Origin: Paralichthys olivaceus
Taxonomy: Eukaryota; Chordata; Actinopteri; Pleuronectiformes; Paralichthyidae
NCBI RefSeq assembly: GCF_024713975.1
Contig: NC_091108.1
Span: 91,001-155,000, forward strand
Length of the DNA: 64,000 nucleotides
Reading direction: 5' to 3'
Shown here: piece after piece, positions 1 through 64,000 of the stretch
How positions within the stretch are numbered: the stretch's first letter is position 1
How the letters are laid out: each line of letters opens with the position of its first letter
The notes under the pieces: model-generated
What the model was told of the DNA's origin: nothing
Databases searched by the model: none
Seen by the model: the letters and a program-made list of their open reading frames with translations, nothing else
Program-made: the position numbers and the translations under genes

Positions 1-808
1 GCAAGCCAGTCGCCAGCAGCCTGTCCATTACCAACACCCCCACATTGTCTTTGCTTTCTACAACGGCGTCTCTTGCCCCATGGCGGACCGACTCAGGGAC
101 ATGGGTGTCTCTGTGCGTGGGGACATTGTAGCTGTCAATGCCGTGGCGACAGAGGAAGGCAGAGAAGACGAAGCCGAGGAGGAGGATGGGCAAGCAGCAG
201 AAGAAGACCATGAAGAGGAGATGGAGGCGTGTGAGCTGACCCGAGTGGACCGCGGCACAGTGGTGGCCAGCCTGGCGTTTCCTGTCCAGGTGCAGGTGGA
301 GGAGTGTCAGCGGGTGAACCTGGACATCACCACACTCATTACGTATGTGTCATCGCTGAGCCACGGCCGCTGTCACTTTACCTTTAGAGAGCCAGTGCTG
401 ACTGATCAGGCCACTCAGGAGCGCTGCCAGCAGGTGCTGCCGCAGCTCGACGCCTTCATGTCGGGAAAGGAGCTGTTTGCCTGCCGTGCCGCTGTTTCTG
501 ACTTCCAGCTGATCCTGGACACACTAGGGGGGCCAGGTGAGAAGGGGCGCGCTGAGAAGTTGCTGGCACGCCTTCACCTGGTGGATGACCAGCCATCAGA
601 GCGAACTATGCGTCTCACACCCAGTGCCAAGGTCAACCAGCGCTCGCTCACCATCTTTGGGACTGGAGACTCGCTGAGAGCCGTTACCATGACAGCAAAC
701 AGCAGGTTCGTTAGGGCGGCAGCTAATCAGGGCGTCCGATACAGCGTGTTTATCCACCAACCACGTGCTCTAACTGAGGGCAAGGAGTGGAGGGCCACAC
801 CCATCTGA
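1..808 (+). CDS. c7orf25: C7orf25 homologue (UPF0415 family), 3' part
   Basis: The open frame runs in from the window edge (frame starting at base 2) to a TGA at 806-808, so the 5' end is missing. The methionine at 80 is probably internal because the frame stays open upstream and the residues before it (ending [12 protein letters not shown]) read like family sequence. The visible part, about 268 residues, has no intron, is acidic around bases 165-230, and ends in a compact domain with the segment [20 protein letters not shown] recognise it as the UPF0415/C7orf25 family, a conserved metazoan protein without a well-defined role; I assign no activity. An AATAAA at 928-933 fits its polyadenylation signal. 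The family call rests on recall of the human protein, not on a search. Confidence 0.78.
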
Positions 809-1874: not shown

Positions 1875-4800
1875 ATGTCTCGAGTGAAAGCAGAGGACGA
1901 GCTGCGGACTCTGTTGGAGGTGAGTCTCTAAACTTTCAGTTTCTAATCTAACTTCACCACTTCAGCTGCTGCAACCTGATTAGCATGTGCAGCTAACAGG
2001 GACTCTCCATTATGACCCATTCATAGCTGTTAAGGTTAGCATGATGCTAACAGTGTCCCCTCTGTCCCTCAGTGTAAATACGTGTTTCCAGAACAGACTG
2101 TATTTGATCTGCAGCGGGTTCGAACCCTTTATTCGGATCTTCGACTTTATGTGGATTTTTATTGTAAGTATCGAATTTATCCCTTTACTTCCTGTCTGTT
2201 TCAAGATAAAAGCACGTTGACGGAGTGTTGACCACAGGTCTTAAGAATCGGGTCTTGGTGGTTCCTGATCGCCCAGAGTCTGATCCTGCACGATCTGGTT
2301 CAGATTGTATTACTTATAAATCAAACGAAAAATGTGTTGATCAAATATTATTGATTAATGTAGCCATTGTTTGTCTAAACAGGTTTTCCAAACAAAGAGA
2401 AGAAGAAGCTGGTTTACCTGGCCGGGACACTTCCTGTTCACTATGAAGGTGAGACCAACAGGTGACCTGGTCTGACCTGGACTCTGACCTCATGTGTAAC
2501 TGTGGCGTACGAACAAAACAAGATTTGAAAGATGAGTTCACCACAGTGAGAATGTGCGCACTTGTACAAACATGTTGGAGAAGAGAAAGTGTTGATGCAG
2601 ATGATAAAATGAAGTCAGATCCACTTTATCATAAACGTTAAAGCAGACGTGTTATTTGTTCTGAGACTGAAGTATTCCATAAGAACCTTTAATTGTAAAA
2701 GATGAAAACAATTTAAAGCAAATTACACTCACTAAAACAACAGTTACAGAACGGAGAGATTCATAGTTTTTAATACTATTCTAACACTGTGTGTGTACAC
2801 TTGAACTTATTTCTTTGTGAGGACTATTTTGAGCATAGATCCTACAGAGTGAGGACATTTTGAACAGTCTGCACTTTTTCAATGGGCTTTTTGAGGGTTA
2901 AGACTTAGCTTTAGAATTAGGTTTAGGTTAGAGTTAGGCATTTAGTTGAGTTAGGGTTAATGTTAGAGGCTGGCATATGCATTATGCCTATGAGGGTCCT
3001 CACTATGATAGAAGCACAAGACTGTCTGTGTGTGTGTAGTCTGGTCTGGATCAGTCTGGTGTTGTTGACTCTCTGCAGGAAGTGAGTATAATATCCCAGT
3101 GTGCATCTGGCTTCATGAGACCCATCCAGTGTCCCGTCCTCGCTGTTATGTCTGTCCATCCGTCACCATGCTGATTAACCCATCCTGTCGCTGTGTGGAC
3201 GCCTCCGGCAACATCAGTCTGACCGAACTAAAGAACTGGACACTCGTAAGTCCCAGTTAGCATGCTCAGTCCACCTGGATACACCTATCCAGTAGCAGAC
3301 TGTAGTAATCCAGATCCTGTCAGTGCTGCTGGTCCACTAAACCAGGATCAGGACAGAATCTCTCCTCTGTCCTCCTGAATCCGAGCTTCTAATGTAGACC
3401 CAGTGCTTTCAGTTACCAGGGAAACAGACAAGTCTTCCCTCCAGTTCCTTGAGTTCCAACATTTTAGCCTAAGTTCTTTTCTGGTTCTTTACTGTCTCTC
3501 TTTAGCTCTTTTTGATTCAAGAACGATTTTCAGTTGAAAATTTTAATCAATATTTCCCATGCAACAAATGACTTGTCATTGTTGCTAATGTTGATGTCAC
3601 TTCCTGTCAGGGTGTGTCCAACCTATCACTGCTCATGTCAGAGATGAGGCGGGCCTTTCAAGTCGACACACCCCTTTATGCCAGGTGTCCCCAACAAGCC
3701 CTGCCCCCTGCAGACGGAAGGTCACACAGGTTATCACTACATGTGCTGTTGATGATCGTTAAATATTATTGATTAGTGGTTATAATCAAGTTTTTACTGC
3801 TCTGTTTCTTCTTCCTGCAGCCTCCACCATACCTCTATCCTCTCCTCCTCCATCACATCCTCCTGCCTGTCAGCACAGAAAGGTTAATCATATCTAAGCT
3901 AAATAATAGCTTTTTAGCATTCTAACTTTATCATGCATGTTTGTGACCTGATGAAGCCCCTCCCCCTGTGTTTCAGCCAGTCAGTGGGAGCAGAGCAGGG
4001 AGATGAGGGTGAGGAAGTCGTACACTGAGGAGCTGCTGGGGATCGACTTCAGTGCTCCACCTTCCTCTAATCACAGCAACCTCCTGCTGACCTCCACCTT
4101 CTCAGGTGAGACTGGACAGGTGAACTCAGGTTAACGAGCTGACTGAGCTGAGGTACACATGGACCACAGGAGTCAAAACCTCTCTCACAGACACACACGA
4201 CCTGGAGGAGTCGATAATTGAACCACAGAACTGATCTGGAATGAAACTGACTCTACTCCACTTGGTTTTGGTTCCTGCAGGTCTCCCTCCAGAGCCCCTC
4301 AGCAGGATGATGGGGGCTCTGAGACTGGATGAGTCAACTAGTGACCAGCAGAGTGACTCACTTGAAAAGATTGTCCAATCAGAGGCAGCGAGAGACAGGC
4401 ATGGAGCAGGCTCCGGACCACCACCTGGACTTCATCAGTACATGTGTCCTCAGAGTCAGTGTGAAGTAGCAGCTGGAGGGGGCCACATTAAGGTGAAGAC
4501 GACTGTAGGTCTCAATCCATCTCAGGTGTTGGTCCCAGTTGGTCTCAGTTTTCCTCTGTCCCTCCTTAGATGGTGGACCATCTTCCACCAGACCAGGCGG
4601 CCATCTTCCTCTCTCTAATGAGGATGGAGGGGCGGAACTTCAGGCCCAGTGATGTCATGGAGGCGGTCCGACTCAACAGAGACCTGCCGTCAGCTCTCAG
4701 GTTCCTGACTCACTGCTGCCCCATCTGTCAGGACCAGGTGACATTTAGCAAGGTGAGACCATGGACGTCTCAGGTGTCTTCTCTGATACAGATGTTTTCT

Positions 4801-7800
4801 TCTGTCAACTTAGTCTTCTCTTTATTTCCTGCAGATCATCACCATGACTCACTGCTCCTGCTTCCTGTGTCAGACTTGTTTCAAAACGTTTTTTTCAGCG
4901 GCTATTAAAGAGCGAAGTGTCGACCAGCTGGTTTGTCCTCAGTGTGGCAGACCTGAGGTCAAAGGTCAGGGGGCGATGGTGGAGTCCATGGAATACTTCA
5001 ACCTGCTGGACACTCAGGTGACCAGGTCACATGATCCGCTTTATTTCATCCATGGAAATGGTTGATGAAAAATGAAACCAGTTTTTTTGTTTATTTTGTT
5101 TGTTTGTTTGTTTGTGTAGATCCGTCACTTCCTGTCTCCTCAGGTTCATGAACTCTTCCAGAGGAAACTTAGAGATCGAGCTCTTCAGGAGATGAAGAAC
5201 TTCTGCTGGTGTTCTCACGTAAGTTAAACAAACAAAAACAAACACATCCTTGTTGGAGCTGGATGTGAAAAGTCTTTATTTGGACAAAATAATTCTGATT
5301 GTTTGTTTGTGTGAGGACACAGTTTTTAGTTTAAGTGGACAGACAGATCAAAGATTATTCATGTTCACATGACCTGATTATGTTTCTGTGTGTTACAGTG
5401 TTCGTTCGGTATACTTCATGAGGCTGAGCGATTGAGGATGGACTGTCCCAACTGTAAGAAGAGTACCTGCTCTCAGTGTAGATCACCTGTAAGACACACA
5501 CGCACACATAACTGTCTGTATCGTTGTACTGATATAAAACAGACACACATGTTTGCAGACTTCACTGTGACATCATTGTGACTCAATGTGATGTCACTGA
5601 CTCATTGTGACATCACTGGCTCATTGTGACTTCACTGAGACTCATTGTGATTCAATGTGATGTCACTGAGTCATTGTGACATCACTGACTCATTGTGACG
5701 TCACTGGGACTCAGTGTGACTCATTGTGACACGTTTGTCTGTTCCTCAGTGGTCTCGTCATCATCAGGGTCGGTCATGTGATCAGTTCCGACTGTGGCAG
5801 CAGCAGAACAAGTTAGACGACACCACGATGCTCAGCTACAACAGCATCGGTACGAATTCTGCAACATGAAGCTGGGTCCCTAAGGCCCCTCAGGACTCTA
5901 GAGCCCAAGCTGTAACTGAACATTATAGTTCTTCTCTGGTTCATGGGGCAGTGTTTTCTTGGGGTTAGGGAATGCATTATGTCAATCAGTGTCCCCACAA
6001 CTACAGAAAGACAAGTGTTGTGTGTGTCTCTCTGATGTGTGTGTGTTTGTGTAGAGTGTCCTGGGTGTTTCTGTGTCTTCAGTTTGTCGAGAGGAGGTTG
6101 TCTTCACTTCACCTGCAGTCAGTGTCAACATCAGTTCTGTGGAGGCTGCAGTCAGACGTTCAGCCAAGGAGCAGTGAGTTCTGCTGGTTCTACTGTTGAT
6201 TTGATTCATTAGATTATGTGGATGAATTTATAAAACTGAGCTGCTCTTCAAAACTTTCACTTTGTGAAACTTGTCACTCACTTGGCACCCACCCTTGAAA
6301 GAACTCGCTCCTGAAAAATCTTTTTTAGATGATGTTTTTTTTTTAGGACTGTGGGTTCTCTGTCGACTGTGGAACCAAAGGTCTTCATGCCCACCACCCC
6401 AGAGACTGTCTGTACCACCTGAGAGACTGGAGTGTGAGCCGCCTCCACCTGCTGCTACAGGTAAGAAGACCTGACACTGTTTGACGGAGCTGTTGCTTGA
6501 TGTTGACGTGAACTGTGCTTCTTTTCTAACAGTATTACAGAGTGTCTCCTTCCTGGTTTGAAGCAGCCAATGGCAGCTCATCTGACGACGGTCTGACAGG
6601 TGAAGTCTCTTCTGTTTCTCAGGTATGAACTGGGTTCTCTCACCTTCTTTAACATTGTGATTTATTTTCAGGAATGTGTTTGGTTTTGGAGCTGAGAGAC
6701 CATGGCAGTTTGCGGGAGGAGCCATGTGGACGACCTAATGAATACAGAGGATACTGCCGGTAAGACTAAACTATCACCAACAAACTATATAGGAGTAAAT
6801 CACCATGGTGACTGATGCTCAAGCAGGTTAAGGTCAAGATAAGATCAAAAAAGTACAGCAACTACTGATCAATCAGATCATTGAAAAATATGTGAATAGA
6901 GTCTTCCAGCAGGTGTCAGTGTTTCTTCTCATGTAAAAAACTTTTTCACATCGTCAGTAATTAATGACTCATGGTCGGGGTCAACCAGTTAGTTATTCGG
7001 TCAGTCTGTCTCCACCCATCTGTTCTGGCAGGTTGCACTATAAAGAGCATTTGGTGGAGTTGATCAACTGTTGTGGTGCAGACCCGGCTGTCCTCTTTAA
7101 TGTGGCAGAGATGACAGCAGAGCTTCAGCGCTGTCAAGTCGCCGTGCCGATTCGGAAACCAGACGAACTGGAGCCGCTGTACGCTCACCGTCTGCGTCTG
7201 GTCAGTGACATCAACATCATAAACACAAGCTTAAAATGTCCTTAAAGGGATAGTTCAACCAAAAATGAGAATTCCCTCTTTATCTTCTCACCACTATGAT
7301 GGAGGGGGGGTGAAGTGTTTGAGTCATAAAACACTTCTGCAGTTTCAGGGGAAAACAGTATTAGAGCAGAATCCAACACAACTGAAGGCTAAAATGACAT
7401 TTAGGCTAAAAACTTGGTGTAAATGACCTTGTTTCCAGTTGAATTTGAATGTCGGGACTTGTGGACACTTGATGACATCACAGGAGCAGGATGGAGGCAT
7501 GTTGTGATTTTTATTGTTTTATTACTTCTGTAGCTGGTCACCAGTTACTTCAGTTTGGATTCTGTGACTTTTAACAGCTGTCTCTGTGCTGTGATGGATT
7601 CTACATCCTGACTGAAAGTTTTCCAACAAACCATTACTGTCTGAATCGTCACACAGCTGGTTAGCAACAGCTTTCTCTAGGATTTCAGAAATGAAGGTTT
7701 GATATGGGTCTGTAATGAGCTCAGACCTCTGGATCAGGCGTAGGCTTTTTAAGCAGAGGTTTAATTACAGCTACTTTAAAAGCTTGAGGTACGTAGCTGG

Positions 7801-8229
7801 TTAACAAATACATGTTCATCTGATTTAATATGGAACTGTCAATCAGGGGGAATACTTCCTTAAAAAGTCCAGTTGGGACAGAGTCTAATAAAGTTGTTGG
7901 TTTAGATGATGAAACTAGTGATGTCAGTTCAGAAGATCAATAAAAGAAAAGAGGTTCAAATATAAATCTGGTGCTACAGAATCATCATCAATAATAATCA
8001 TTATTAACAGAATCATGGATTTTATGTGTCTGGTTTAAGTTTGTTATTTTTTATTTTTACTTTCAGCCAATCACTGAGTAGGATTCTGTCTGTTCTTTAG
8101 ACTCTAACCAATCAAGTTCCTCTCAGGAAGCAACCACGCTCGCCGCTGAAACTTCACGACGACCTCCATCCTCTGACCTCTGCTGTAACGACTGGACGTC
8201 CGCCCCCTCCAAACACGCCACTGCATTAA
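1875..8229 (+). CDS. UEV-RBR-LDD protein: HOIP/RNF31-like E3 ubiquitin ligase with N-terminal UEV domain
   Basis: Nineteen exons with GT-AG borders: 1875-1919, 2073-2163, 2383-2448, 3079-3245, 3611-3729, 3821-3882, 3977-4105, 4281-4492, 4570-4752, 4835-5017, 5120-5218, 5399-5488, 5750-5849, 6055-6173, 6347-6460, 6533-6599, 6672-6759, 7032-7200, 8101-8229; phases close to 743 residues. Residues about 15-150 are a UEV domain (YNIPVCIWLHETHP, then VDASGNISLTELKNW) like TSG101, with no Cys at the E2 active position. A low-complexity linker follows. From about residue 305 it tracks human HOIP: helical segment, RING1 (CPIC...C.CF.C), IBR, RING2 with GGCLH (nucleophile Cys about residue 531, codon 6099-6101) and an LDD with HHPRDC, LRDW and a zinc-binding C..C..H cluster. 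HOIP's PUB, NZF and UBA parts are absent. By family it should form ubiquitin-thioester and possibly linear chains; substrate unknown. AATAAA at 8314-8319. Confidence 0.85.
2775..3045. repeat. Dispersed GTGAGGAC-type repeat in intron 3
   Basis: Contains GTGAGGAC ends, a central run resembling TTAGGTTTAGGTTAG/GTTAGGG and the phrase TGCATTATG. The same ingredients occur in opposite orientation at 27002-27225 and, partly, at 5935-6020. This is a short interspersed non-coding repeat; its class cannot be fixed by eye. Confidence 0.5.
5567..5735. repeat. Minisatellite in intron 12 of the UEV-RBR gene
   Basis: Imperfect tandem units built on TCATTGTGACATCACTGAC. It sits between the exon ending the IBR segment (5488) and the next exon at 5750, stopping only about 15 bases before the splice acceptor. 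Confidence 0.75.
7246..7400. repeat. Dispersed AAAGGGATAGTTCA-type repeat (copy 1)
   Basis: Starts with the AAGGGATAGTTCA...AAAAATGA motif common in teleost genomes and continues with CTCACCACTATGATGGAG and GGGGAAAACAGTATTAGAGC. A second copy is at 21555-21665 in an intron of the zinc-finger gene. Both lack coding potential; probably a non-autonomous DNA transposon remnant. Confidence 0.6.
7540..7930 (-). mobile_element. L2-like LINE fragment (reverse transcriptase region), minus strand
   Basis: The stretch carrying CTGTGCTGTGATGGATTCTA and CACACAGCTGGTTAGCAACAG matches equivalent stretches in the minus-strand LINE copies at 14880-15030 and 62690-62790. It is a short decayed piece lying in the last intron of the UEV-RBR gene and has no usable open frame. 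Confidence 0.6.
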
Positions 8230-8799
8230 AAGTGCTCTGTCACCATAGCAACCACTGACTGTGGTTTAGAGGTTTAGTTTCAGTGATGAACTAACAAATT
8301 CTAACAACACTTAAATAAATGTTTAATGCCGGTGACATTATTGGTGACATCCCTTGTCAGCTTCCCTCTGTGGCTTCTGATTGGCTCACTGGACTTCATA
8401 GAAACACAGCCAGAGAAAAATAAAAGGGACCAAAGAAAATCTAAGCAGCCAAACCGAGTTCAGAAGTGCAATTAACTTCAACGAGTTAAATGTTAATGAA
8501 AAGAGACAAGTTCTAATGTGCTGATGATGCTAACGAGCTTCTCAGTACAGAGTGTGGTTAACAGCAAGCGTTTGTTAGCATTTGGCCGACATTTGAGTGG
8601 TTTTATTCTTCTGCACTGTTTCAATAAAAAAATAATAAACGTATTTAAACATCTTTCAAATTCCTGTTTCCATGACAACCACAATAGGTAAATAGTGAAA
8701 GTCTCACACTGATTTTCCATTCTTCAGAAAAGAATGAGACGAGTTCAAAGGTCAAACTGAGACAAACAAGTAGAGTCACCAGTCTATATATAAACATAC

Positions 8800-10616: not shown

Positions 10617-12163
10617 TTACAATTGTGGTGGCAGAGTGTCGTCTCTGATTGGACTGAAGGGGTCGATCTCTTTGACGATCTTCTCAGCGACAGTTCTGTT
10701 GTTAGCAGCAACGATTCTTCTGGACATCAGGTCGACGGTTCCTCCTGAACACAGGTGAGAGACACTCAACATCTGCAGCTGGAACCTCAACCTGCGACTA
10801 CATTCCATATTTACCGTCCACGTCCATCAGGACTCCTCCAGCCTCAGAGACGATCAGCGAGGCGGCGGCGATGTCCCACACATGAACGCCAATCTCATAA
10901 TAAGCCTCGACACAACCAGATGCAACCAGACACATGTTGATGGCTGCAGTTCCTGCGCTGCGAACCCTGGAACATGTGTAAACTGTTACTGATGTAAAGG
11001 TACAGGTGTGTGTCAGTTGTGTGTTACAGGTATGTGTTACCCTTGTACAGGGAGACACAGGATGTTCCTCAGACTGGAGAAGATTTTGTTGACAGCTTCA
11101 ACATCTCTGTTGGATCCGAACTCGGTGGCAATGATCGACTGACGAACGTCTGAGAAACAAAACACATCAAGAGTCAGATTCTTTGCTCTGACTGGATCAG
11201 GGCATCATGACGTGTCATTTATCTGACAGGTGTCGTCACCATGTTATTGATGAGGACATATTATTGATTACAGACCTTCCTGATCAGAAACCTGCAGTGG
11301 TTCTCCGTTACAGAATGCTCCTCTCCCTCTCCTCGCAGTGAACATCTTGTCTTCCAGACAACTGTACACGACAGCAAACTCACTCTGTCAGAGAGGAGAG
11401 ACAAAGAACAGAAGAACCTTCAGACTGTTCTACACTGGAACCACAGAGAACCTTCAGACTGTTCTACACTAGAACCACAGAGAACCTTCAGACTGTTCTA
11501 CACTGGAACCACAGAGAACCTTCAGACTGTTCTACACTGGAACTACAGAGAACCTTCAGACTGTAGTACATCGGAACCAAAGAGAACCTTCAGACTGCTC
11601 TACACTGGAACCACAGAGAACCTTCAGACTGTACTACAACATCAGAACCAAAGAGAACCTTTAGACTGTACTACAATATCAGAACCAAAGAGAACCTTTA
11701 GACTGTAATAGAACATCAGAACCACAGAGAAGCTTCAGACAGAGTGTGCTAGAACATCTGAACTACAGAGAACCATATTAGATTAACTGTAGTACTGCTG
11801 TGCTCATGTAGATGGAAGCACTGTACTGATGTGACCTCTGACCTGCTTGTTGACGTAGAATCCGATGGAAACTGCAACAAAAGGGAAACTGTCAGAAACA
11901 AGAAGGTTATTCAAAAGATCAGTGAGAGTCGTCACAGTAACAGTCACTAAACATCATGCTGACGATGATGCAATTAAACATGTTTCATTAATTAACTCAC
12001 GCATGAACAAAGTTGGTCGTTCCGTCGATGGGGTCAATGATCCAGGTGGGACTGTCTGTGAGGTCACAGGTTTCACCTGCCGCCACTGACTCCTCCCCTA
12101 TGAACCTGACACATACACATACAAAGTAGATCTGTGTTGTCAATCAAGTTATCAATCACACAC

Positions 12164-15628: not shown

Positions 15629-16863
15629 TTACAGTGACAGTGCCTGTGAGGTGTCACTGTCTGACATCACAGAGACTCGAGTTGAGCTAAGCGGACTCCT
15701 GTTGGTCTGACCCAGTTGACTCTTGTTGACCAATGGCATGCAGCGGCTGCTGCTGCAATGCAGGAGCTGTAGTACATCGTGGCGGAAACGCACGCCCACA
15801 AATGCATAGAGGAAGGGGTTGAGGCAGGCGTGCATGTAAGCCAGACTCTTTAGTACCTGTCCCAACATGTCGAAACGCTTCACCTCCTCGCAGTCCGTCA
15901 TAGTCATGTTGGAGGCCTGCGTAACCTCCATGACCAGTACACCATTGTAAGGCAGCTGGGACATGACGAACACTACCACCACAGCCAATATGACGCGCAT
16001 GGCCTTGTGCTTTTGGAAGTTTCGGGTATTGAGCAGCTTGGCAACAATAACGCTGTAGCAAAATGCCATGATGATGAAGGGTAAGAAGAACCCCATGCTC
16101 ACCAGTAATGACAGCACCACGATCTTGGTGCAGTTGCCCAGGTAAGTGGGGAACACCATCCTGCAGTACTGCTGAGAGTCCACGTTAACGATGGTGGCAA
16201 ACACAAGCTCAGGAGTGGCCAGCAGCAGGGCCAGCAGCCACACCCCCACACACACCAAGCAACTGTAGCGACGGCGCTCAAGCTGTGAGTTTTGTGCCCT
16301 GGTGGACTGGACAATGACAACATAGCGGTCAACACTGATGCATGTGAGCAGTAGCATGCTGCTGAACAGGTTCACCTTGTAGAGGGCGGAGTTGATCTTA
16401 CAGAGGGCAAAACCAAAATTCCAGCCGTGTGATGCCTCGGCCGCCCACAGCGGCAGTGTGACCAGGAACAGCAGATCGGCCACTGCCAGGTTCAGCAGGT
16501 ACACATCTGACATGGTCTTCAGTCGCCGCCGGAAGTTCAGGTAGATCCACACCACAGCCAGGTTCCCAGCTCCGCCAACCAGGGTGATCATCCAGAACAG
16601 CGGCGGCTCAAACAAACGCCTGAAAGTCCGCACTGGTGCCCGGTCACACATCAGGTCCTGGTCCTCGTAGTAGTCATCAGTGGTGAACAAGGACGGTTCC
16701 TAATTGGAAGAAATGATACACGTGAACTCAACTGCTGCACGTTTACCAGTCATTCGTCAAACCAATCAATGAACACACCAAATTGCAAAATAATCAATAA
16801 CTAACTGAACAGATTATTTCTTACCTTGGTGGTGAATCCTGTGATGTTCTTGAAGGCATCCAT
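15629..16863 (-). CDS. ccr9: Chemokine receptor, CCR9-like
   Basis: Two minus-strand coding exons: 16825-16863 (MDAFKNITGFTTK) and 15629-16699, total 369 residues. The second exon frame has no ATG at its left edge (TTG at 16690), and the canonical acceptor at 16700-16701 plus donor AAG|GTAAG at 16824 join in phase, which fixes the real start. It is a class A GPCR with seven hydrophobic segments, SVDRYVVIV at the end of TM3, LNPFLYAF in TM7, and conserved extracellular Cys residues. The N-terminus has an NIT glycosylation site and a DDYYEDQD tyrosine-acidic patch suited to sulfation and chemokine binding. The C-terminus ends in QALSL, close to human CCR9's GALSL. In the family, CCL25 binding drives lymphocyte homing to gut and thymus; the ligand in this fish is not shown. 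Confidence 0.88.
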
Positions 16864-22716: not shown

Positions 22717-23004
22717 ATTCCAAGCGCTCTGATTGGACTGTTAGCTTGTGAGCGGAACTACACTGATGATGTCACAGTCAGACTTTAACAAAGTTTTTAT
22801 TGATAACGAAAATAAAATGTAAAAAATGAATCAGTGTGTGAGTGAGTCAGTGTCTAGAGTGACTCATGTTATAACTCATCCCGGCTGCAGACGCCCGGCG
22901 TTCACACTATGATGATGATGTGACAGCGTGGGCGGAACCCCGTCATCCTGCTGAGTTTTAGGAAGTGGATTATCACGTGGTGGGATGACCCCTGTTATCT
23001 CTAT

Positions 23005-24330
23005 CAGCCGACATCCAGCCGACATTCAACCAACATCCAGCGTTCAACCAACGTGCAGCCGACATTCAACCAACATCCAGCCGACATTCAACCAACATCC
23101 AGCCGACATCCAACCAACATCCAGCCGACATCCAACCAACATCCAGCCGACATTCAACCAACATCCAGCCGACGTTCAACCAACATCCAGCCGACATCCA
23201 ACCAACATCCAGCCGACATTCAACCAACATCCAGCGTTCAACCAACGTCCAGCCGACGTTCAACCAACATCCAGCCGACATCCAACCAACATCCAGCCGA
23301 CGTTCAACCAACATCCAGCCGACGTTCAACTAACATCCAGCCGACATCCAACCAACATCCAGCCGACGTTCAACTAACATCCAGCATTCAACCAACGTCC
23401 AGCCGAAATCCAACCAACATCCAGCCGATGTTCAACCAACATCCAGCCGACGTTCAACCAACATCCAGCCGACATCCAACCAACATCCAGCCGACGTTCA
23501 ACCAACATCCAGCCGACGTTCAACCAACATCCAGCCGACATCCTGCGGACATCCAACCAACATCCAGCCGACATTCAATCAACATCCTGCCGACGTTCAA
23601 CCAACATCCAGCCGACGTTCAACTAACATCCAGCATTCAACCAACGTCCAGCCGAAATCCAACCAACATCCAGCCGATGTTCAACCAACATCCAGCCGAC
23701 GTTCAACCAACATCCAGCCGACATCCAACCAACATCCAGCCGACGTCCAACCAACATCCAGCCGACATCCTGCGGACATCCAACCAACATCCAGCCGACA
23801 TTCAATCAACATCCTGCCGACGTTCAACCAACATCCAGCCGACATCCAACCAACATCCAGCCGACATTCAACCAACATCCAGCCGACGTTCAACCAACAT
23901 CCACCCGACGTTCAACCAACATCCAGCCGACATCCAACCAACATCCAGCCGACGTTCAACCAACATCCAGCCGACATCCTCCGGACATCCAACCAACATC
24001 CAGCCGACATTCAACCAACATCCTGCCGACGTTCAACCAACATCCAACCAACATCCTGCGGACATCCAACCAACATCCAGCCGACGTTCAACCAACATCC
24101 TGCCGACGTTCAACCAACATCCACCCGACGTTCAACCAACATCCTGCGGACATCCAACCAACATCCAGCCGACGTTCAACCAACATCCAGCCAACGTTCA
24201 ACCAACATTCAACCAACATCCAGCCGACATTTAACCGACATCCAGCCGAAATTCAACCGACATCCAGCCGACATTCAACCAACATCCAGCCGACATTTAA
24301 CCGACATCCAGCTGACATCCAGCCGACATC
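23005..24330. repeat. 22-bp minisatellite array, about 1.3 kb
   Basis: Tandem units of CATCCAGCCGACATTCAACC-AA type (22 bp), roughly 60 copies, with CATT/CATC/CGTT variants and a few CCTGCGGAC variants. Because 22 is not a multiple of three, three units give 66 bases and the absence of stops yields a 393-codon plus-strand frame and several minus-strand frames; no start context or splice logic supports a gene. A pyrimidine-rich tract (24330-24440) follows, then an AATAAA at 24673-24678 of unknown ownership. Confidence 0.95.
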
Positions 24331-24782
24331 CTTCTCTATCTTTTCCTTCCTTTCCCCCTTCCTTTTTCCTTCCTTTCCTCCTCCCCTCCTTTTTCCTTCC
24401 TTCTTTACCTTCTTCCATTCTCTCCCACCTCCTTGGTACCATCCAGTCTTCAAATCATCATCCAGTCTTTGTCTTTACCACCTGCATTTCTTCATTTATT
24501 ACCTCCATCTTTCCTCCCTCCTTACCTTTTTTATCCTTTCTTACTGTCATTGACAGCCAGCTGAAGTTTCCCTTCCTGCAGCTTAAGTCACAAACATGTA
24601 TTTTTTTTATGAAATTGTTTTATATTGTTGAGTCTCTGTAGACTCTATAATTGTCAATGTACAGCTGCTGTCAATAAAGTTGAGTGGCCTGAAGCTGTTA
24701 ATCTTTCAGATTAGCAGTGTGCTCGGTCCGTCAGCAGTTAGCAGATAAACTCTGTGCCGCTAATCTCCGTTAATCAGTCGAC

Positions 24783-33621: not shown

Positions 33622-36600
33622 ATGGCTACGGAGGAGTTCTACGAGGTGATGCGAGCTAATACTCTAATGCTAATCTTAGCTAGCGGTAGCGTTCAGAGTT
33701 ATTGTGCAAGTGGTGAACTCAAGGGAAGTAACTAACGTGTTAGTTAGTTAGATTAGTAAGTTAGTTAGCAGCTGGTTGACTCGTTCACGTGACTCTTGTT
33801 GGAGATAAACACAACTGATCGAGTTAGCTCAGTGCCACAGTTAGCTTCTGGAAGTAGCCGCGGTGTTAGCTGGTTCAGGCTGGGTGGTAGCTGGTGTTTG
33901 CTGGTGTTAGCCGGTGACAGCTGGGTGTTAACCGGTGTTAGCTGGGGGACAGCTGGGTGTTAGCTGGGTGATGGCCGGGTGTTAGCTGGGTGATGGTCGG
34001 GTGTTAGCTGGGTGACAGCTGGGTGTTAACTGCTGTTAGCTGGGTGTTAACCGGTGTTAGCTGGGGGATGGCCCGGTGTTAACTTGTGACAGCTGGGTGT
34101 TAACTGGTGTTAGCTGGGTGTTAACTGCTGTTAGCTGGGGGACAGCTGGGTGTTAACTGGTGTTAGCTGGGTGATGGCCGGGTGTTAGCTGGGTGATGGC
34201 CGGGTGTTAGCTGGGTGACAGCTGGGTGTTAACTGCTGTTAGCTGGGTGTTAACTGGTGTTAGCTGGGGGATGGCCCGGTGTTAACTTGTGACAGCTGGG
34301 TGTTAACTGGTGTTAGCTGGGTGTTAACTGCTGTTAGCTGGGGGACAGCTGGGTGTTAACTGGTGTTAGCTGGGTGATGGCCGGGTGTTAGCTGGGTGAT
34401 GGCCGGGTGTTAACTGCTGTTAGCTGGGTGTTAACTGGTGTTAGCTGGGGGATGGCCCGGTGTTAACTTGTGACAGCTGGGTATTAACTGGTGTTAGCTG
34501 GGTGACAGCTGGGTGTTAACTGGTGTTAGCTGGGTGATGGCCGGGTGTTAGCTGGGTGATGGCCGGGTGTTAGCTGGGTGTTGGCTAGGTGACAGCTGGG
34601 TGTTAACTGGTGTTAGCTGGGTGACAGCTGGGTGTTAACTGCTGTTAGCTGGGTGACAGCTGGGTGTTAACCGGTGTTAGCTGGGGGATGGCCCGGTGTT
34701 AACTTGTGACAGCTGGGTGTTAACTGGTGTTAGCTGGGTGTTAACTGCTGTTAGCTGGGGGACAGCTGGGTGTTAACTGGTGTTAGCTGGGTGATGGCCG
34801 GGTGTTAGCTGGGTGATGGCCGGGTGTTAGCTGGGTGACAGCTGGGTGTTAACTGCTGTTAGCTGGGTGTTAACTGGTGTTAGCTGGGGGATGGCCCGGT
34901 GTTAACTTGTGACAGCTGGGTATTAACTGGTGTTAGCTGGGTGTTAGCTGGGTGTTAGCTGGGTGATGGCCGGGTGTTAGCTGGGTGATGGCCGGGTGTT
35001 AGCTGGGTGTTGGCTAGGTGACAGCTGGGTGTTAACTGGTGTTAGCTGGGTGACAGCTGGGTGTTAACTGGTGTTAGCTGGGTGATGGCCGGGTGTTAGC
35101 TGGGTGACAGCTGGGTGTTAACTGCTGTTAGCTGGGTGACAGCTGGGTGATGGCTGGGTGTTAACTGCTGTTAGCTGGGTGACAGCTGGGTGATGGCTGG
35201 GTGTTAACTGCTGTTAGCTGGGTGACAGCTGGGTGATGGCCAGGTGTTAGCTGGGTGTTAGCTGGGTGTTAACTGCTGTTAGCTGGGTGACAGCTGGGTG
35301 ATGGCCGGGTGACAGCTGGGTGTTAACTGCTGTTAGCTGGTGTTAACTGGTGTTAGCTGGGTGACAGGCCGGGTGCTCTTTGACATACATTACACACATT
35401 ATATAGTTTTTGTTGACATTTCCTATATGCATTGATAATTTCTTTGCAGGTTTCGATTCCATTTGATTTGTTGGAATATTAAATTAGTTCAGGATATTTC
35501 TGTGTACAATAATTTGCCTAGATATGAAAGAAATTCTCAGAGAATGAAAGCTGTAAACTGTGAAACCTCTTGACTTGGTGCATTATTTATAATTCTCAGG
35601 TAGACCCTTCACAATCATCGGTGTGTGTGTTCTCTCTTTACATTTTCATTGTCTTTAAATGCATCTCAAAAACTCTCCAGAGAATCAAACAAACACAAAG
35701 TAAACTTCAGTTCTGTTCAGGTTCTAATAATGTGTGATGAGTGCTGGTGTTTAATGTGAAAGTGTAAAGTGATCTCAGTTCAGCAGGAAAGTGGAGGACA
35801 ACACACAAGAGACTCTGACACTTCTGTTCTGATCCTGAAGCAGCAGGATAATTTTACAGCGTTGGTGGAAACTGTATTCACACTTTCTATTTTCACTGAC
35901 ACACATCACCTGTGTCAGTGTGTGACTGTGGGCGGGCACTGTGTATGTGAGTGTAAACTCCGCAGAGGAGATGAGATGAGGAAGCAACTCGATCAAATAT
36001 CTTGATATTTTCTGGGATTTTGCCGATAATAATAATAAGACTGCTGATGGAGCATGGCCAGGGTGGAAAAAAGAGAGGGGTAAGGCTGAGACCCACATTT
36101 CTGGTTCTTGGTGTTCTCTGTAGAGTCAAAACCACAAAAACTCTTTTCTAATAAATTGTTTCTAAACATTTTTGCACACACCGATGACATCACTGGTCAT
36201 GCTGGTATCATGACTTAGTCAGTGGTCCACCTGAACAAGATGCAGTTTCAGTAACATAAGTCCTGAATGTCTCATTTTATTTTAATGTTTGTTTTTCTTC
36301 TGCTGTTTTGGTTGATTTGAATAAACGGTGCTGCGGCGCCTCCTGCAGGTGGAGAGGATAATCGATAAGAGGAAGAACAAGAAGATGAAGTTGGAGTACC
36401 TGGTCAGGTGGAGAGGTTATGGTTCAGAGGAGGACACCTGGGAGCCCGAGAGTCACCTATCCACTTGTATGATCTACGTCCATGAGTTTAACCGTCAGCA
36501 TGCAGAGCGGGAGAAAGACAGCACGTTACTGCGCTCCACGCGAAGCTCACCCAGCCTCCACTATATATCTGCCCACAGACAACCCTTCAGGCCGCCAATC

Positions 36601-39576
36601 ACTGCCTCAGCTCGAAGTGACATCAGTGTGGTTTTAACTGGGGACTGTAAACAGGTGAGTCCAGCTCACCTGCCTCCTATTGGACTGACCAGTCCGACCT
36701 CTGTGGGCTCACACCAGCCCCTGCCGGTTGACAGGTTCAGCAGTGGCCTGATGTCGGCAGCTCCAGCCTGCTCAGCCCGCCGTAGCATGGATCTCTCCAA
36801 GACTGGCATCAAGATCTTGGTTCCGAAGAGTCCAATGAACAGCCGTCTGGACTCGGAGGAGTCTCCCAGTGAGGCGGCTCACAGTCTTGAGGCTGGACCT
36901 CAAGAGGCTCACCAGGTCCCACCTGAGGTCGCTCTTCTGGAGAAACCAACCGGAGTCCAGCTTGGGCCCGGAGAAGAGAGGGCCCGCATGGGGACCAGAC
37001 CCCGCAGCCAGAACCCTCTGCCCCCACCCCGAGTCCCCATCACACCTGCTGCCATGCGCTCCCTCAGTGGCACAGGTGAGGTCCTAGGTCACATAGTTTG
37101 CATGAGTCTGATTGGTTATCACAGCAGCTTGTTTGGATGTCTCAGAAATCATAATCTTAATCTTGGTCACAAAAAAACGTTCAAAACAAATTTAATGAAT
37201 TTATATAAATAACCTGTTGTTCATGAATGAGGTCAGAGGTTGTGTGAATAAAAAAACACTGGAATGGCCTGTGTTTTTCTTCTTACAGGTAACGTTGCGT
37301 TACTAGAGGCTGTTACTGCCAGCGGGATGTCAGGTGGGCAGAGTGCTGTTGCTGGGGCAACCAGTGTGGCAGGGAAGCGTCGTCTAGAGGAACGCTCTGC
37401 TTTTGACAAACGCCTGAGGTTCAGTGTTCGACAGACAGAGAGTGCTTACCGTTACCGTGACATTGTGGTGAAGAAACAGGACGGCTTCACCCACATTCTG
37501 CTTTCCACCAAGAGCTCTGAGAACAACACGCTCAACCCTGAGGTGGGATCATGCCCCCATCAATTAACCCACACCCCATAATAACAGAGCTCTACAAGTT
37601 GTTTTCTGTGATCTTGCTACTTCATTTTTTTAACCCAGGTCTCTTTCATGTGATCATGCCTCTCTGTTCTGATATCACCAGTCCAAACTTGCTCAGGTTA
37701 AACTCCACATGTCATGGTGACTGACCTCAGCAGTAATGTCGTCTCCCATTGTCCTCATCAGGTGATGAAGGAGATCCAGAGCGCCATGGCAACTGCGGCA
37801 TCGGATGACAGTAAGCTGGTGTTAGTTAGTGCTGTCGGCAGTGTCTTCTGCTGCGGCCTAGATTTTCTGTATTTCATCAGGCGATTGACGGACGACCGGA
37901 AGAAGGAGAGCATCAAAATGGCTGAAATCATCAGGTGATGCTCACTGAAGTCACAATGGTAACCCTGACATCGGATAGAGGTGTAGATCTCTGACCCTTG
38001 TTTCCTCCACACCAGGACTTTTGTCAACACCTTCATCCAATTCAGAAAGCCGATTGTAGCGGCAGTGAACGGGCCAGCGTTGGGCCTTGGTGCCGCCATC
38101 CTGCCACTTTGTGATGTGGTGTGGGCCAATGAAAAAGCCTGGTTCCAGACACCGTACACATCCTATGGCCAGACGCCTGATGCCTGCTCATCGTTCACCT
38201 TCCCCCGCATCATGGGTCTCGCCTCGGTCAGTCTTCCTCTTCATTTCCATTCACTCACCTTCTCGCTTCGTTTACCATCACTCACCCTACTGCTTCATTT
38301 ATCCTCACGTTCAGGGTTCAATGTTCTGTTTAGTAAAACGTTCTGTGTTTAAACGTTCTGTGTTTAAACGTTCTGTTTAAACGTTCTGTGTTTAGTTAAA
38401 CGTTCTGTGTTTAAACATTCTGCGTTTAAACGTTCTGTGTTTAGTTAAATGTTCTGTGTTTAAATGTTCTGTGTTTAAACATTCTGTGTTAAGATAAATG
38501 TTCTGTGTTTAGTTAAACGTTCTGTGTTAAGATAAACGTTCTGTGTTTAGTTAAACATTCTGTGTTAATATAAACGTTCTGTGTTTAGTTAAACGTTCTG
38601 TGTTAAGATAAATGTTCTGTGTTTAGTTAAACGTTCTGTGTTAAGTTAAACGTTCTTTGTTTAGTTAAACGTTCTTTGTTTAGTTAAACGTTCTTTGTTT
38701 AGTTAAACGTTCTGTGTTTAGTTAAATGTTCTGTGTTTAGTTAAACGTTCTTTGTTTAGTTAAACGTTCTGTGTTTAGTTAAACGTTCTGTGTTAAGTTA
38801 AACGTTCTTTGTTTAGTTAAACGTTCTTTGTTTAGTTAAACGTTCTTTGTTTAGTTAAATGTTCTGTGTTTAGTTAAACGTTCTTTGTTTAGTTAAATGT
38901 TCTGTGTTTAGTTAAACGTTCTTTGTTTAGTTAAACATTCTGTTAAATGTCGTGTTTTGCTAAATGTTCCATTGTGTTCCAGGCTAACGAGCTGTTGCTG
39001 AGTGGCAGGAAGTTGACGGCTCAGGAGGCGTGTTGTAAAGGTTTGGTGTCTCAGGTTCTGTGGCCGGGAACCTTCACACAGGAAGTGATGCTGAGGATCA
39101 AAGAACTGGTGACAGTCAACTCACTGGTCAGTCAATACACACACACGGACACTAATACTCAAACACAGACACTAATACACGGACACTAATACACACACAC
39201 GGACACTAATACACACACACGGACACTAATACACACACAGACACTAATACTCAAACACAGACACTAATACACACACAGACACTAATACACACACAGACAC
39301 TAATACACACACAGACACTAATACTCAAACACAGACACTAATACTCAAACACAGACACTAATACACACACAGACACTAATACTCAAACACAGACACTAAT
39401 ACTCAAACACAGACACTAATACACACACAGACACTAATACACGGACACTATCACACACGGACACTAATACACACACACACACAGACACTAATACTCAAAC
39501 ACAGACACTAATACACACACAGACACTAATACACACACAGACACTAATACATGGACACTATCACACACGGACACTA

Positions 39577-41743: not shown

Positions 41744-42752
41744 TCATGGTGGACAGGTGTCATGTGCCCCTGTAGCCAGGTGAAGATGGTAGGTGTGGTC
41801 GTGGAACATCAGCAGGTTGTAGAAGTTCTCTCCTCCTGTCAGGACTCCGTGCTCACCATCCCCCCAAGATACAGGACTGTCAACGAAACCGTGAACCGTC
41901 AGAGACGCCCAGGGTGCCAGTCGAGGCTGCTGCAGGTGACACCTGCAGGACAGGTGAGGAAATGACACAAAGATAAACAGATGTTTTTTCAAGAAACCAG
42001 AAGTCTGGAAAAACCAGATGCCACCACTGAGACAAACTGCAGTCAAACAAACATTACGTCTTGATGTCAGATGCCCGTAATAACAGATCCACGGTTCTTA
42101 AGTTATCCAAGTCAGGACTTAGAGGTTGTTACGACAACCAGTAAAAAAGTTTCACCTGAGCTCCTGGACGAGCCGCTGGACATCCTGAGGAAGCAGCAGT
42201 CCACAGATGGAGACCCTCAGAGCTCGACTCAGTGTTGTCTTCGGCTCCGGACAGACCATTGAGGACAGGAAGCTGCTGGACGAGTTCTCACTGAAACACA
42301 GAAGACTAGTTCACGGTTTCCTGTCTGACAGGTGTTCACAGAGAAGGTTCAAAGAGACCAGTCGTCACCAGCTGATGTCGGCGTCCACGGCTCCCAGCCA
42401 CTCCAGGCAACTGTGAGCATCATCTGGCTGCAGGTCAGAGGACAGCAGGGCGGGACAGGACAGGTGTTTCAAGACCTGACTGCTGATCTCAGGTCTGTGC
42501 TCCGACCAATCATAACGCGACAGAAGGGGCTGCAGAGAGGCTCCACCCTCTGCAGAACAGACAGCTGTGGGTTATGGGTAAAATAACATTGGTAACATGT
42601 TGAAACGTGTGATGATGTAACTCACCTGGATGATGTGACAGCAGGAAGTCGCTCCTCAGGGGAAGTCGTGACCTCAGACCTGTGAGGAGTCTGACATAGC
42701 CCCGCCCACCAGGAGCCATGCTGCTGTCAGTCAGATCCACGGATACAACTGT

Positions 42753-42787
<35 letters not shown>

Positions 42788-51984: not shown

Positions 51985-52060
51985 CATCGTTTCTATTGGA
52001 TGGGGTTAAGGTTTATTGGGAGTTGAGCTCTGATTGGCTGTTTGTTCTATAAAAAGAAGT
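51985..52060 (+). promoter_or_regulatory. TATA box with upstream CCAAT-type motifs
   Basis: TATAAAA at 52048-52054, with ATTGG (inverted CCAAT) at about 51995 and 52033. A CAG|GTTTCT donor-like site occurs at 52102/52103, exactly where the 9-bp array begins. This could be the promoter and a short non-coding first exon of the IMPA1-type gene at 60843, with the array as its first intron. Inference. Confidence 0.35.
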
Positions 52061-52103
52061 TTAGACGACAAACTTGTTTTCCATTACATGCTTCAGACTC
52101 AGG

Positions 52104-60711: not shown

Positions 60712-60842
60712 ATGCTCGTCATCCATCCTTTCTTTCCTTTCCCTTCTTTGATTTCACGTCATGACTTTCTCTTTCTTATCACCGTGCTCTTCTCCTCTGT
60801 CTGACAGGAGGTCTCACTCTGTCACTTTTTCATCTGTCCATC

Positions 60843-63800: not shown

Positions 63801-64000
63801 TTATTAAAGCCTGGTTTATTTAAGCTTGGTTTATTAAAGCCTGGATACTTTGATAGTCATTATTGTTTTTCTCAACAGGTTTCCATTTGTGGCCGTCTCC
63901 ATCGCCTTCACTGTCAACAAGCAGGTAGAGTCACTTGCAGGTCAGAGGTCAGAGGGCTTAGACAGGAAGTAGACTAACACCCTGTTGTTGTTGTCGTTGT
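60843..64000 (+). CDS. impa1: Inositol monophosphatase, IMPA1-type, second gene (5' part)
   Basis: First four coding exons: 60843-60902, 61094-61227, 61302-61406, 63879-63924; the gene runs out of the window. The protein so far is [12 protein letters not shown]..., with [15 protein letters not shown] and [23 protein letters not shown], unmistakably the N-terminal half of IMPA1. Exons 2, 3 and 4 have the same lengths and phases (134, 105, 46 bases) as in the minus-strand paralogue at 10617-12511; exon 1 is one codon shorter. The second Thr of the DPIDGTT motif is Val here. Start context is ATCATGG. A possible 5' UTR acceptor (CTGACAG) is at about 60808. Intron 3 contains a LINE and a 15-bp minisatellite. 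Confidence 0.93.
61505..62810 (-). mobile_element. L2/Maui-like LINE, 3' part, minus strand
   Basis: Low end has an AATTCAATTCAATTC tail and TTTATTTATATAGCTCC, the 3' end of the element. Minus-strand coding remnants: [65 protein letters not shown] (62226-62591), and further upstream [23 protein letters not shown] and FDTIDH (62575-62790). The stretch with YADD is deleted between the two parts. A short AAAT repeat is at 62070-62098. Inactive copy in IMPA1 intron 3. Confidence 0.88.
62915..63845. repeat. 15-bp minisatellite in IMPA1 intron 3
   Basis: About 60 tandem units of CCTGGTTTATTAAAG with TTTAAG, CTAAAG, TTGAAG and CTTGG variants, in strict 15-bp register so that line-by-line the sequence repeats every four units. 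It ends about 35 bases before the exon-4 acceptor. Confidence 0.96.

What the first reader, a model, noticed from the sequence alone, without database searches (positions are those of the whole stretch)
1875..8229. UEV domain fused to the HOIP catalytic half: a possible ESCRT-style reader joined to a linear-ubiquitin ligase
Seen: a continuous, phase-consistent 19-exon model encodes a TSG101-type UEV followed by a HOIP-type RING1-IBR-RING2-LDD. The RING2 nucleophile (GGCLH) and LDD LRDW segment are retained. In the UEV the two tyrosines of the VHYEGSEYNIPV stretch and the Met of VTMLIN sit where TSG101 contacts P(T/S)AP peptides. Known: HOIP normally carries PUB, NZF and UBA domains, none of which is present here. 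Inferred: a ligase recruited by PTAP-like or ubiquitin signals, perhaps independent of HOIL-1L and SHARPIN, that builds linear chains. I know of no characterised protein with this architecture.
Basis: partly seen in the sequence, partly recalled or inferred. Interest (0 to 1): 0.85.

Follow-up and report, generated by a model that had tools for sequence, protein, structure and literature searches.

The report
UEV-headed HOIP-type ubiquitin ligase gene
This fish gene joins the peptide-binding domain of the membrane-sorting protein TSG101 to the catalytic half of HOIP, the enzyme that builds linear ubiquitin chains; it suggests that linear-chain building could be sent to TSG101's partners without the usual LUBAC partner proteins.

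Summary
At 1875-8229 (+) a 19-exon, phase-consistent model encodes 743 aa: an N-terminal TSG101-type UEV (Pfam PF05743, E=1.3e-33), a ~150-aa linker, then HOIP RING1-IBR-RING2-LDD (PDB 5edv, E=2.6e-83). No RWD, PUB, NZF or UBA_HOIP is detected. All 28 Cys of the aligned human HOIP catalytic part, plus H887, R935 and D936, are kept. The same genome holds two other HOIP genes that do carry the UBA; the window gene is a third, older or fast-evolving relative. Ten intron positions of its HOIP half match a fish HOIP gene and four of its UEV half match three fish UEV genes, so it arose by fusion of genomic exons. Best reading: an active HOIP-type ligase, probably building linear chains, recruited by P(T/S)AP-like peptides and uncoupled from HOIL-1L/SHARPIN. 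The peptide-reading step is the weakest: 7 of 12 groove residues are kept, against 6 of 12 in a UEVLD-like gene. Ubiquitin reading by the UEV is not supported. That one transcript joins both halves has good sequence support but no RNA evidence here. The paper searches made did not turn up this architecture.

The parts
1875..1919 (+). exon 1, start Met; N-terminal part of UEV
   Evidence: aligned with TSG101 from residue 6
2073..2163 (+). exon 2 (UEV)
2383..2448 (+). exon 3 (UEV; 66 nt as in the three other UEV genes of the genome)
3079..3245 (+). exon 4 (UEV core with most peptide-groove residues)
3611..3729 (+). exon 5 (UEV C-terminal part; possible donors after 3684, 3720 and 3729 all leave the same phase)
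3821..3882 (+). exon 6 (linker; least certain exon, open in all three frames)
3977..4105 (+). exon 7 (linker, KSYTEELLGIDFSAPP)
   Evidence: only this frame is open
4281..4492 (+). exon 8 (linker)
   Evidence: only this frame is open
4570..4752 (+). exon 9 (HOIP-like pre-RING1 segment and start of RING1)
4835..5017 (+). exon 10 (RING1)
5120..5218 (+). exon 11 (RING1-IBR; 99 nt as in both fish HOIPs)
5399..5488 (+). exon 12 (IBR; 90 nt as in both fish HOIPs)
5750..5849 (+). exon 13 (end of IBR, linker to RING2)
6055..6173 (+). exon 14 (RING2 with the catalytic Cys of GGCLH, residue 531)
6347..6460 (+). exon 15 (RING2/LDD, HHPRDCLYHLRDW)
6533..6599 (+). exon 16 (LDD; a donor after 6590 is an in-phase alternative)
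6672..6759 (+). exon 17 (LDD)
7032..7200 (+). exon 18 (LDD)
8101..8229 (+). exon 19 (LDD end, proline-rich tail, stop)
   Evidence: start matched blind
8314..8319 (+). AATAAA, likely poly(A) signal 85 nt past the stop (an ATTAAA also overlaps the stop at 8225)

Best explanation
One gene, made by fusion of the UEV exons of a TSG101/UEVLD-type gene to the 3' half of a duplicated HOIP gene. Shown by sequence: the domain order, shared intron positions of both halves, kept zinc ligands and catalytic Cys, and that it coexists with two other HOIP genes, which have a UBA. Inferred: the protein is an active RBR ligase. An E2~ubiquitin binds RING1-IBR, ubiquitin passes to the RING2 Cys, and the LDD presents the acceptor ubiquitin so that mainly Met1-linked chains form. 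The UEV takes the place of HOIP's N-terminal adaptor half and brings the ligase to proteins with P(T/S)AP-like motifs (ESCRT-0, arrestin-related or similar endosomal factors; clients recalled, not tested), so that linear chains can be made on endosomal or budding-site cargo without HOIL-1L/SHARPIN docking. My step probabilities: single fusion gene 0.88; active ligase 0.75; mainly linear chains 0.65; P(T/S)AP-like recruitment 0.45 (lowered from 0.5 after one search showed that a UEVLD-like gene keeps almost as many groove residues); freedom from HOIL-1L/SHARPIN 0.7. The confidence given is for the core: a fused gene making an active HOIP-type, UEV-directed ligase.
For: UEV E=1.3e-33, LDD E=1.1e-19; HOIP E=2.6e-83 over residues 347-711; TSG101 UEV E=2.9e-25 over 6-148. 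35 of 43 Cys/His of the aligned human HOIP chain are kept, 28 of 28 Cys; the 8 lost are all His, and 3 of those 8 are changed in both fish HOIPs as well. C885, H887, R935, D936 kept; LUBEL mutants at the positions equivalent to R935 and D936 make fewer linear chains, and full-length LUBEL works without HOIL-1L or SHARPIN (PMC5090701, passages). Intron positions from the blind alignments: ten of ten in the HOIP half agree with the C16 22.5-Mb HOIP in residue and phase (one of them through a window donor 9 nt from the model's, same phase); against the C17 HOIP eight agree exactly and two are 1 and 3 residues off in the same phase; four of four UEV-half introns match three other UEV genes, the first within 1-2 residues. 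UBA_HOIP is found at two HOIP loci but not in the window gene in one and the same search. No AATAAA or ATTAAA between 1716 and 4904, hence none between UEV and RING1; linker exons 7 and 8 are open only in the model frame; linker GC3 0.60 against GC 0.40 in the introns.
Against: No transcript, protein or second-species evidence was available; with free choice of splice sites an in-frame path across exons 6-8 is not surprising, exon 6 is open in all three frames, and the donors of exons 5 and 6 depart from consensus (GTTATC, GTTAAT). The RBR-LDD is only 39-40% identical to each of three HOIPs, which are 61-75% identical to each other; only 3 of 17 HOIP-invariant columns are kept in the IBR-RING2 linker, which is also 5 residues shorter, and HOIP positions 974 and 983 read L and E instead of Q and D. 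UEV groove: only 7 of 12 contacts identical, against 12 in fish TSG101, 8 in its neighbour gene (2 positions unaligned there) and 6 in the UEVLD-like gene. A Met opens exon 9 and another lies in exon 7, which would allow shorter, UEV-less products.
Confidence: 0.5

Rival explanations
1. Two neighbouring genes: a small UEV-only gene and a short HOIP-like RBR gene whose own promoter lies in or near exons 6-8.
For: Only 840 bp separate exon 5 from exon 9; exons 5 and 6 have donors that depart from consensus; Met codons exist in exon 7 and at the first codon of exon 9.
Against: No poly(A) signal of the two kinds sought between 1716 and 4904; linker exons 7 and 8 read open only in the joining frame with coding-like GC3; three possible exon-5 donors all leave phase 2 into exon 6; exon 9 sits behind an acceptor in phase 0, as the corresponding HOIP exon does.
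Confidence: 0.1
2. A fusion gene that is expressed but whose ligase half is no longer a linear-chain enzyme (changed linkage, a weak ligase, or a regulator of LUBAC), or a gene in decay.
For: Long branch (1.49 against 0.17-0.40 substitutions per site for the three HOIPs); IBR-RING2 linker divergence and deletion, Q974L, D983E.
Against: All 28 aligned Cys, catalytic C885/H887 and R935/D936 kept; LDD keeps 52 of 79 and RING2 19 of 26 HOIP-invariant columns; frame intact over 743 codons.
Confidence: 0.25
3. Ligase as in the best explanation, but the UEV is a structural or other protein-binding module (as may be the case in UEVLD) rather than a P(T/S)AP reader.
For: Tyr63, Tyr68, Asn69 and Met95 are kept in all five UEVs compared, UEVLD-like included; the window keeps 7 of 12 listed contacts, the UEVLD-like gene 6; R64E, V141L, F142Y.
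Against: D34, T58 and I70 are kept in the window but not in the UEVLD-like gene, and F142 is replaced by another aromatic.
Confidence: 0.4

Closest known systems
HOIP / RNF31 (LUBAC catalytic subunit)
   Same: pre-RING1 segment, RING1-IBR-RING2-LDD, catalytic Cys, all 28 aligned Cys, ten intron positions
   Different: no PUB, NZF or UBA_HOIP detected; UEV at the N-terminus; 39-40% identity in RBR-LDD; two other HOIP genes in the same genome carry the UBA
LUBEL (Drosophila CG11321)
   Same: a HOIP-type RBR-LDD acting without HOIL-1L/SHARPIN (PMC5090701, passages)
   Different: LUBEL has B-box, NZF and UBA domains and is described as larger than HOIP; no UEV among the domains named in the passages seen
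TSG101 (ESCRT-I)
   Same: UEV over residues 6-148 with four shared intron positions and 7 of 12 listed peptide contacts
   Different: no coiled coil or steadiness box; UEV 38% identical to human TSG101; recalled ubiquitin contacts diverged; ligase half instead
UEVLD
   Same: another gene in which the same UEV exons precede an enzyme (dehydrogenase-like) half
   Different: unrelated enzyme half; UEV 33% identical to the window UEV

Membership tests
HOIP family (catalytic half) | RING1-IBR-RING2 with catalytic Cys and LDD | tested here: met
HOIP family (catalytic half) | LDD residues R935/D936 important for linear linkage | tested here: met
   role from PMC5090701 passages
HOIP family (catalytic half) | gene structure of HOIP | tested here: met
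   10 of 10 introns of the aligned part match the C16 HOIP, one through an in-phase alternative donor
LUBAC subunit HOIP in the full sense | UBA region that binds HOIL-1L | tested here: not met
   no UBA_HOIP listed; one search finds it only at two other loci
LUBAC subunit HOIP in the full sense | PUB and NZF domains | tested here: not met
   not listed at E up to 0.1, nor for the linker at E up to 10; PUB not at the window (that search also lists no PUB at the C17 HOIP, so its reach is limited); no genome search with an NZF model was made
LUBAC subunit HOIP in the full sense | Met1-linked chain synthesis | not testable with these tools
   needs an enzyme assay
UEV (TSG101 type) | UEV domain over the Pfam cut-off, no Cys at the E2 active-site region | tested here: met
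   115.8 bits against cut-off 27; residues at TSG101 107-112 are G, N, I, S, L, T (site recalled)
UEV (TSG101 type) | P(T/S)AP groove residues | tested here: inconclusive
   7 of 12 identical, UEVLD-like gene 6 of 12 (list from PMC7650771)
ESCRT-I subunit TSG101 | coiled coil and steadiness box | tested here: not met
   no such Pfam family listed at E up to 0.1; frames of that look lie in the C7 TSG101 gene (read by eye)
RWD domain (rival for the N-terminal half) | match to RWD rather than UEV | tested here: not met
   no RWD listed

The most novel reading that the evidence does not exclude
A vertebrate lineage has a second, LUBAC-independent route to linear ubiquitin: a stand-alone HOIP-type ligase whose TSG101-like UEV delivers Met1 chains to P(T/S)AP-bearing ESCRT clients or to retroviral and other budding proteins that carry such late motifs, tying linear ubiquitin to endosomal sorting and budding-site defence.
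Probability: 0.25. Interest if true: 0.88.

Novelty: new variant of a known kind. Interest (0 to 1): 0.64.

Why it matters
Mammalian full-length HOIP needs HOIL-1L or SHARPIN to make linear chains (PMC5090701, passage), and I recall it as the only linear-chain enzyme described in vertebrates. A third HOIP relative in one fish genome, with its adaptor half replaced by an ESCRT-type domain, would be a natural test of what the LDD alone specifies and would link linear ubiquitin to ESCRT clients. It makes direct predictions: UEV peptide binding, Met1 chains from the bare protein, endosomal location.

Tried and rejected
Looked for relatives in viral contigs: 2 stretches matched a pattern, none confirmed. 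The collections here hold no other eukaryote genomes, so conservation in other fish could not be tested. Considered a recent teleost duplicate of one of the two fish HOIPs: not favoured, since at 68 sites where both fish HOIPs agree against human, the window shares the fish state at 15, the human state at 12, neither at 41, and states private to either fish HOIP are shared at 2 and 2 sites. Considered retroposition: rejected by shared introns. Tried to tie the gene to a trout locus called RNF31-like near IRF4-like and signalosome subunit 5 (PMC6723134, one table passage): the one CSN5_C match listed is on C17 at 4.62 Mb, and the nearest of the 24 listed IRF matches on C16 is about 9 Mb away, so no support. 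Changes of a salmon 'RNF31-like' protein on virus infection (PMC12575339, passages) cannot be assigned to this gene. Linker motif search: of six patterns two matched, a clathrin-box-like LLGID at residue 203 (seen in 5.6% of shuffled linkers) and an LIR-like FSGL (55%); leads at most. The five-sequence UEV tree does not put the window UEV inside the TSG101 clade (support 88 for TSG101s plus the neighbour gene, without window and UEVLD-like), so the donor UEV gene is undecided. NCBIfam gave nothing for the UEV part (a prokaryote library). A Sharpin search did not complete.
Full report
What is there. The window lies at 91,001-155,000 of contig C16 of a 588-Mb genome in 25 contigs. At 1875-8229 on the + strand a 19-exon model reads 743 codons without a stop; all 18 introns are GT-AG. 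My first exon-14 end was 4 nt too far and broke the frame; the donor follows 6173. Pfam finds UEV at 25-145 (E=1.3e-33), two IBR-type families, and the HOIP C-terminal family PF18091 at 586-678 (E=1.1e-19). Against solved structures the best matches are human HOIP, 347-711, E=2.6e-83, and human TSG101 UEV, 6-148, E=2.9e-25 for the UEV part alone. The N-terminus nearly coincides with that of TSG101 and the C-terminus runs 32 residues past the last residue aligned with human HOIP, so the coding region looks complete. An AATAAA lies at 8314.

Independent check of the exons. I wrote a spliced protein-to-DNA aligner; it recovers the 19 exons from the protein. Given human HOIP or TSG101 residues only, it finds the boundaries of exons 2-4, 10-15, 17 and 18 and the starts of exons 16 and 19; it ends exon 16 at 6590 instead of 6599, in the same phase, and adds a few spurious short pieces where the human query has no counterpart. 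Scores 638 and 205 compare with 103, 117, 140 and 72, 82, 81 on two shuffled windows and the reverse strand. Exons 1 and 5-9 were not recovered by that blind test; exons 1, 5 and 9 rest on the alignments, exons 6-8 on frame alone.

Relatives in the same genome. LDD matches lie in three genes: the window, C16 near 22.545 Mb and C17 near 18.95-18.97 Mb (5 places). UBA_HOIP matches lie in the latter two only (5 places). A PUB match lies at C16:22,519,883, upstream of that HOIP, below the family's curated cut-off; the other two PUB matches (C20, C3) were not examined, and none is listed at the C17 HOIP. The C17 gene sits next to an IRF gene (C17:18,946,335-18,946,728), which fits the human IRF9-RNF31 neighbourhood that I recall; it is therefore the likely RNF31 ortholog. 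UEV matches lie in four genes: the window and three on C7: a gene 82% identical to human TSG101 in the UEV, its upstream neighbour, and a gene at 4.869 Mb followed by dehydrogenase-like reading frames, hence UEVLD-like (the last assignment is by eye). These searches score only the best candidates of a first look, so the counts are lower bounds.

Origin. In the blind alignments the ten introns of the window's HOIP half lie at HOIP positions 711, 769, 802, 832, 870, 910, 948, 967, 999 and 1056 with phases 0,0,0,0,1,0,0,1,2,0; the C16 HOIP has the same ten, the C17 HOIP eight of them exactly and the other two 1 and 3 residues away in the same phase. I left out short spurious pieces: before 711 in the window and C17 (two each) and one at 909 in C16. 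The intron at 967 in the window is reached with the donor after 6590, 9 nt before the model's. The four UEV introns (13/0, 43/1, 65/1, 120/0 in TSG101 numbering) match those of the three C7 genes, the first within 1-2 residues; two spurious window pieces, at 7 and 123, are left out. Exon 9 also carries a HOIP-like stretch before RING1 (local score reached by 7 and 15 of 2000 shuffles against the two fish HOIPs). So genomic exons of a UEV gene were fused to the 3' half of a HOIP gene, with the break somewhere in exons 6-8. The RBR-LDD is 39-40% identical to human HOIP and both fish HOIPs, which are 61-75% identical to each other; shared states do not favour descent from the fish HOIPs (15 fish-like, 12 human-like, 41 neither, of 68 sites). 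Either the duplication predates the split of fish and tetrapods or the gene evolves fast; four sequences cannot separate these.

Is it one gene? Between exons 5 and 9 there is no AATAAA or ATTAAA; linker exons 7 and 8 are open only in the joining frame (exon 6, 62 nt, is open in all three); GC at third positions of the linker is 0.60 against a GC of 0.40 in the introns; three possible exon-5 donors leave the same phase. Exons 5 and 6 have donors that depart from consensus. In-frame joins can arise by chance when splice sites are chosen freely, so this is good but not final evidence; RNA is needed.

Catalysis. Of 43 Cys and His in the aligned human HOIP chain 35 are kept, among them all 28 Cys; the eight changed are all His, three of them changed in both fish HOIPs too. 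C885, H887, Q896, R935 and D936 are kept. Of 201 columns identical in three HOIPs the window keeps 115: RING1 15 of 28, RING1-IBR linker 12 of 25, IBR 14 of 26, IBR-RING2 linker 3 of 17, RING2 19 of 26, LDD 52 of 79 (domain limits set by me). R935 and D936 matter for linear linkage, and Drosophila LUBEL makes linear chains alone (PMC5090701, passages). The prediction is an active ligase that mainly makes Met1 chains, with a caution from the divergent IBR-RING2 linker and from Q974L and D983E (positions chosen from memory as acceptor-side residues).

Recruitment. PMC7650771 (one passage) lists D34, T58, Y63, R64, Y68, N69, I70, T92, M95, V141, F142 and S143 as TSG101 contacts of the native peptide. 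The window has D, T, Y, E, Y, N, I, S, M, L, Y, A: 7 of 12 identical. Fish TSG101 has 12, its neighbour gene 8 (two positions unaligned), the UEVLD-like gene 6. V43, N45, D46 and F88, which I recall as ubiquitin contacts, are C, P, N, Y. HOIP binds HOIL-1 through its UBA and Sharpin through NZF2 (table in PMC3940038, passage); both are undetected here.

Literature. Nine paper searches were made. Those aimed at the architecture: UEV domain with RBR and HOIP (0 papers); UEV with RBR ubiquitin ligase and HOIP (9 papers held the terms, 8 listed, none of the 8 opened); UEV with RNF31 and domain architecture (1 paper, PMC3940038, whose one UEV passage is about Uev1a as a binding partner); four of UEV domain, IBR, RING, gene fusion, fish (229 papers, 20 listed, none on this by title). 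None described this architecture as far as seen. Only open-licence papers are searched, and predicted proteins in sequence databases could not be queried, so automatic annotations such as RNF31-like may already cover the gene.

Verdict. Observation confirmed; interpretation partly supported. A real and unusual variant of the HOIP ligases, well worth an RNA and enzyme test.

Noticed in passing
G000 C16 22.515-22.555 Mb (L019-L022) and C17 18.945-18.985 Mb (L015-L018): Two further HOIP genes, both with UBA_HOIP matches, 75% identical in RBR-LDD; the C17 copy lies beside an IRF gene, so it is the likely RNF31 ortholog and the C16 copy an extra paralog.
   Followed up: partly
G000 C17, about 18.953-18.964 Mb (L015, L016): Roughly 10 kb of a tandem repeat (reading DFGSHSLLCRFF...) lies between LDD exons of the C17 HOIP gene.
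   Followed up: no
G000 C7 4.4617-4.4628 Mb (L023): A UEV gene directly upstream of TSG101, 48% identical to it in the UEV, possibly a tandem TSG101 paralog; its other half was not examined.
   Followed up: no
window 2-805: 3' end of a DUF1308/DUF5614 gene (C7orf25-like by recall) just upstream of the finding, same strand.
   Followed up: no
window 10801-11097 (-) and 61055-61252 (+): Exons matching inositol monophosphatase on opposite strands about 50 kb apart, so two such genes.
   Followed up: no
window 36325-38349 and 42513-42818: Chromodomain and enoyl-CoA hydratase exons (CDYL-like by recall) followed by an Rpp40 exon on the other strand.
   Followed up: no
window 15632-16699 (-): Rhodopsin-family receptor in a single open frame of 356 aa.
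   Followed up: no
window 52034-60748; also 22924-24638 and 62901-63974: Very long open frames made of short tandem repeats, not genes by their look.
   Followed up: no
window 3977-4105, residue 203 of the protein: Clathrin-box-like LLGID in the linker; a motif of this form appears in 5.6% of shuffled linkers.
   Followed up: partly
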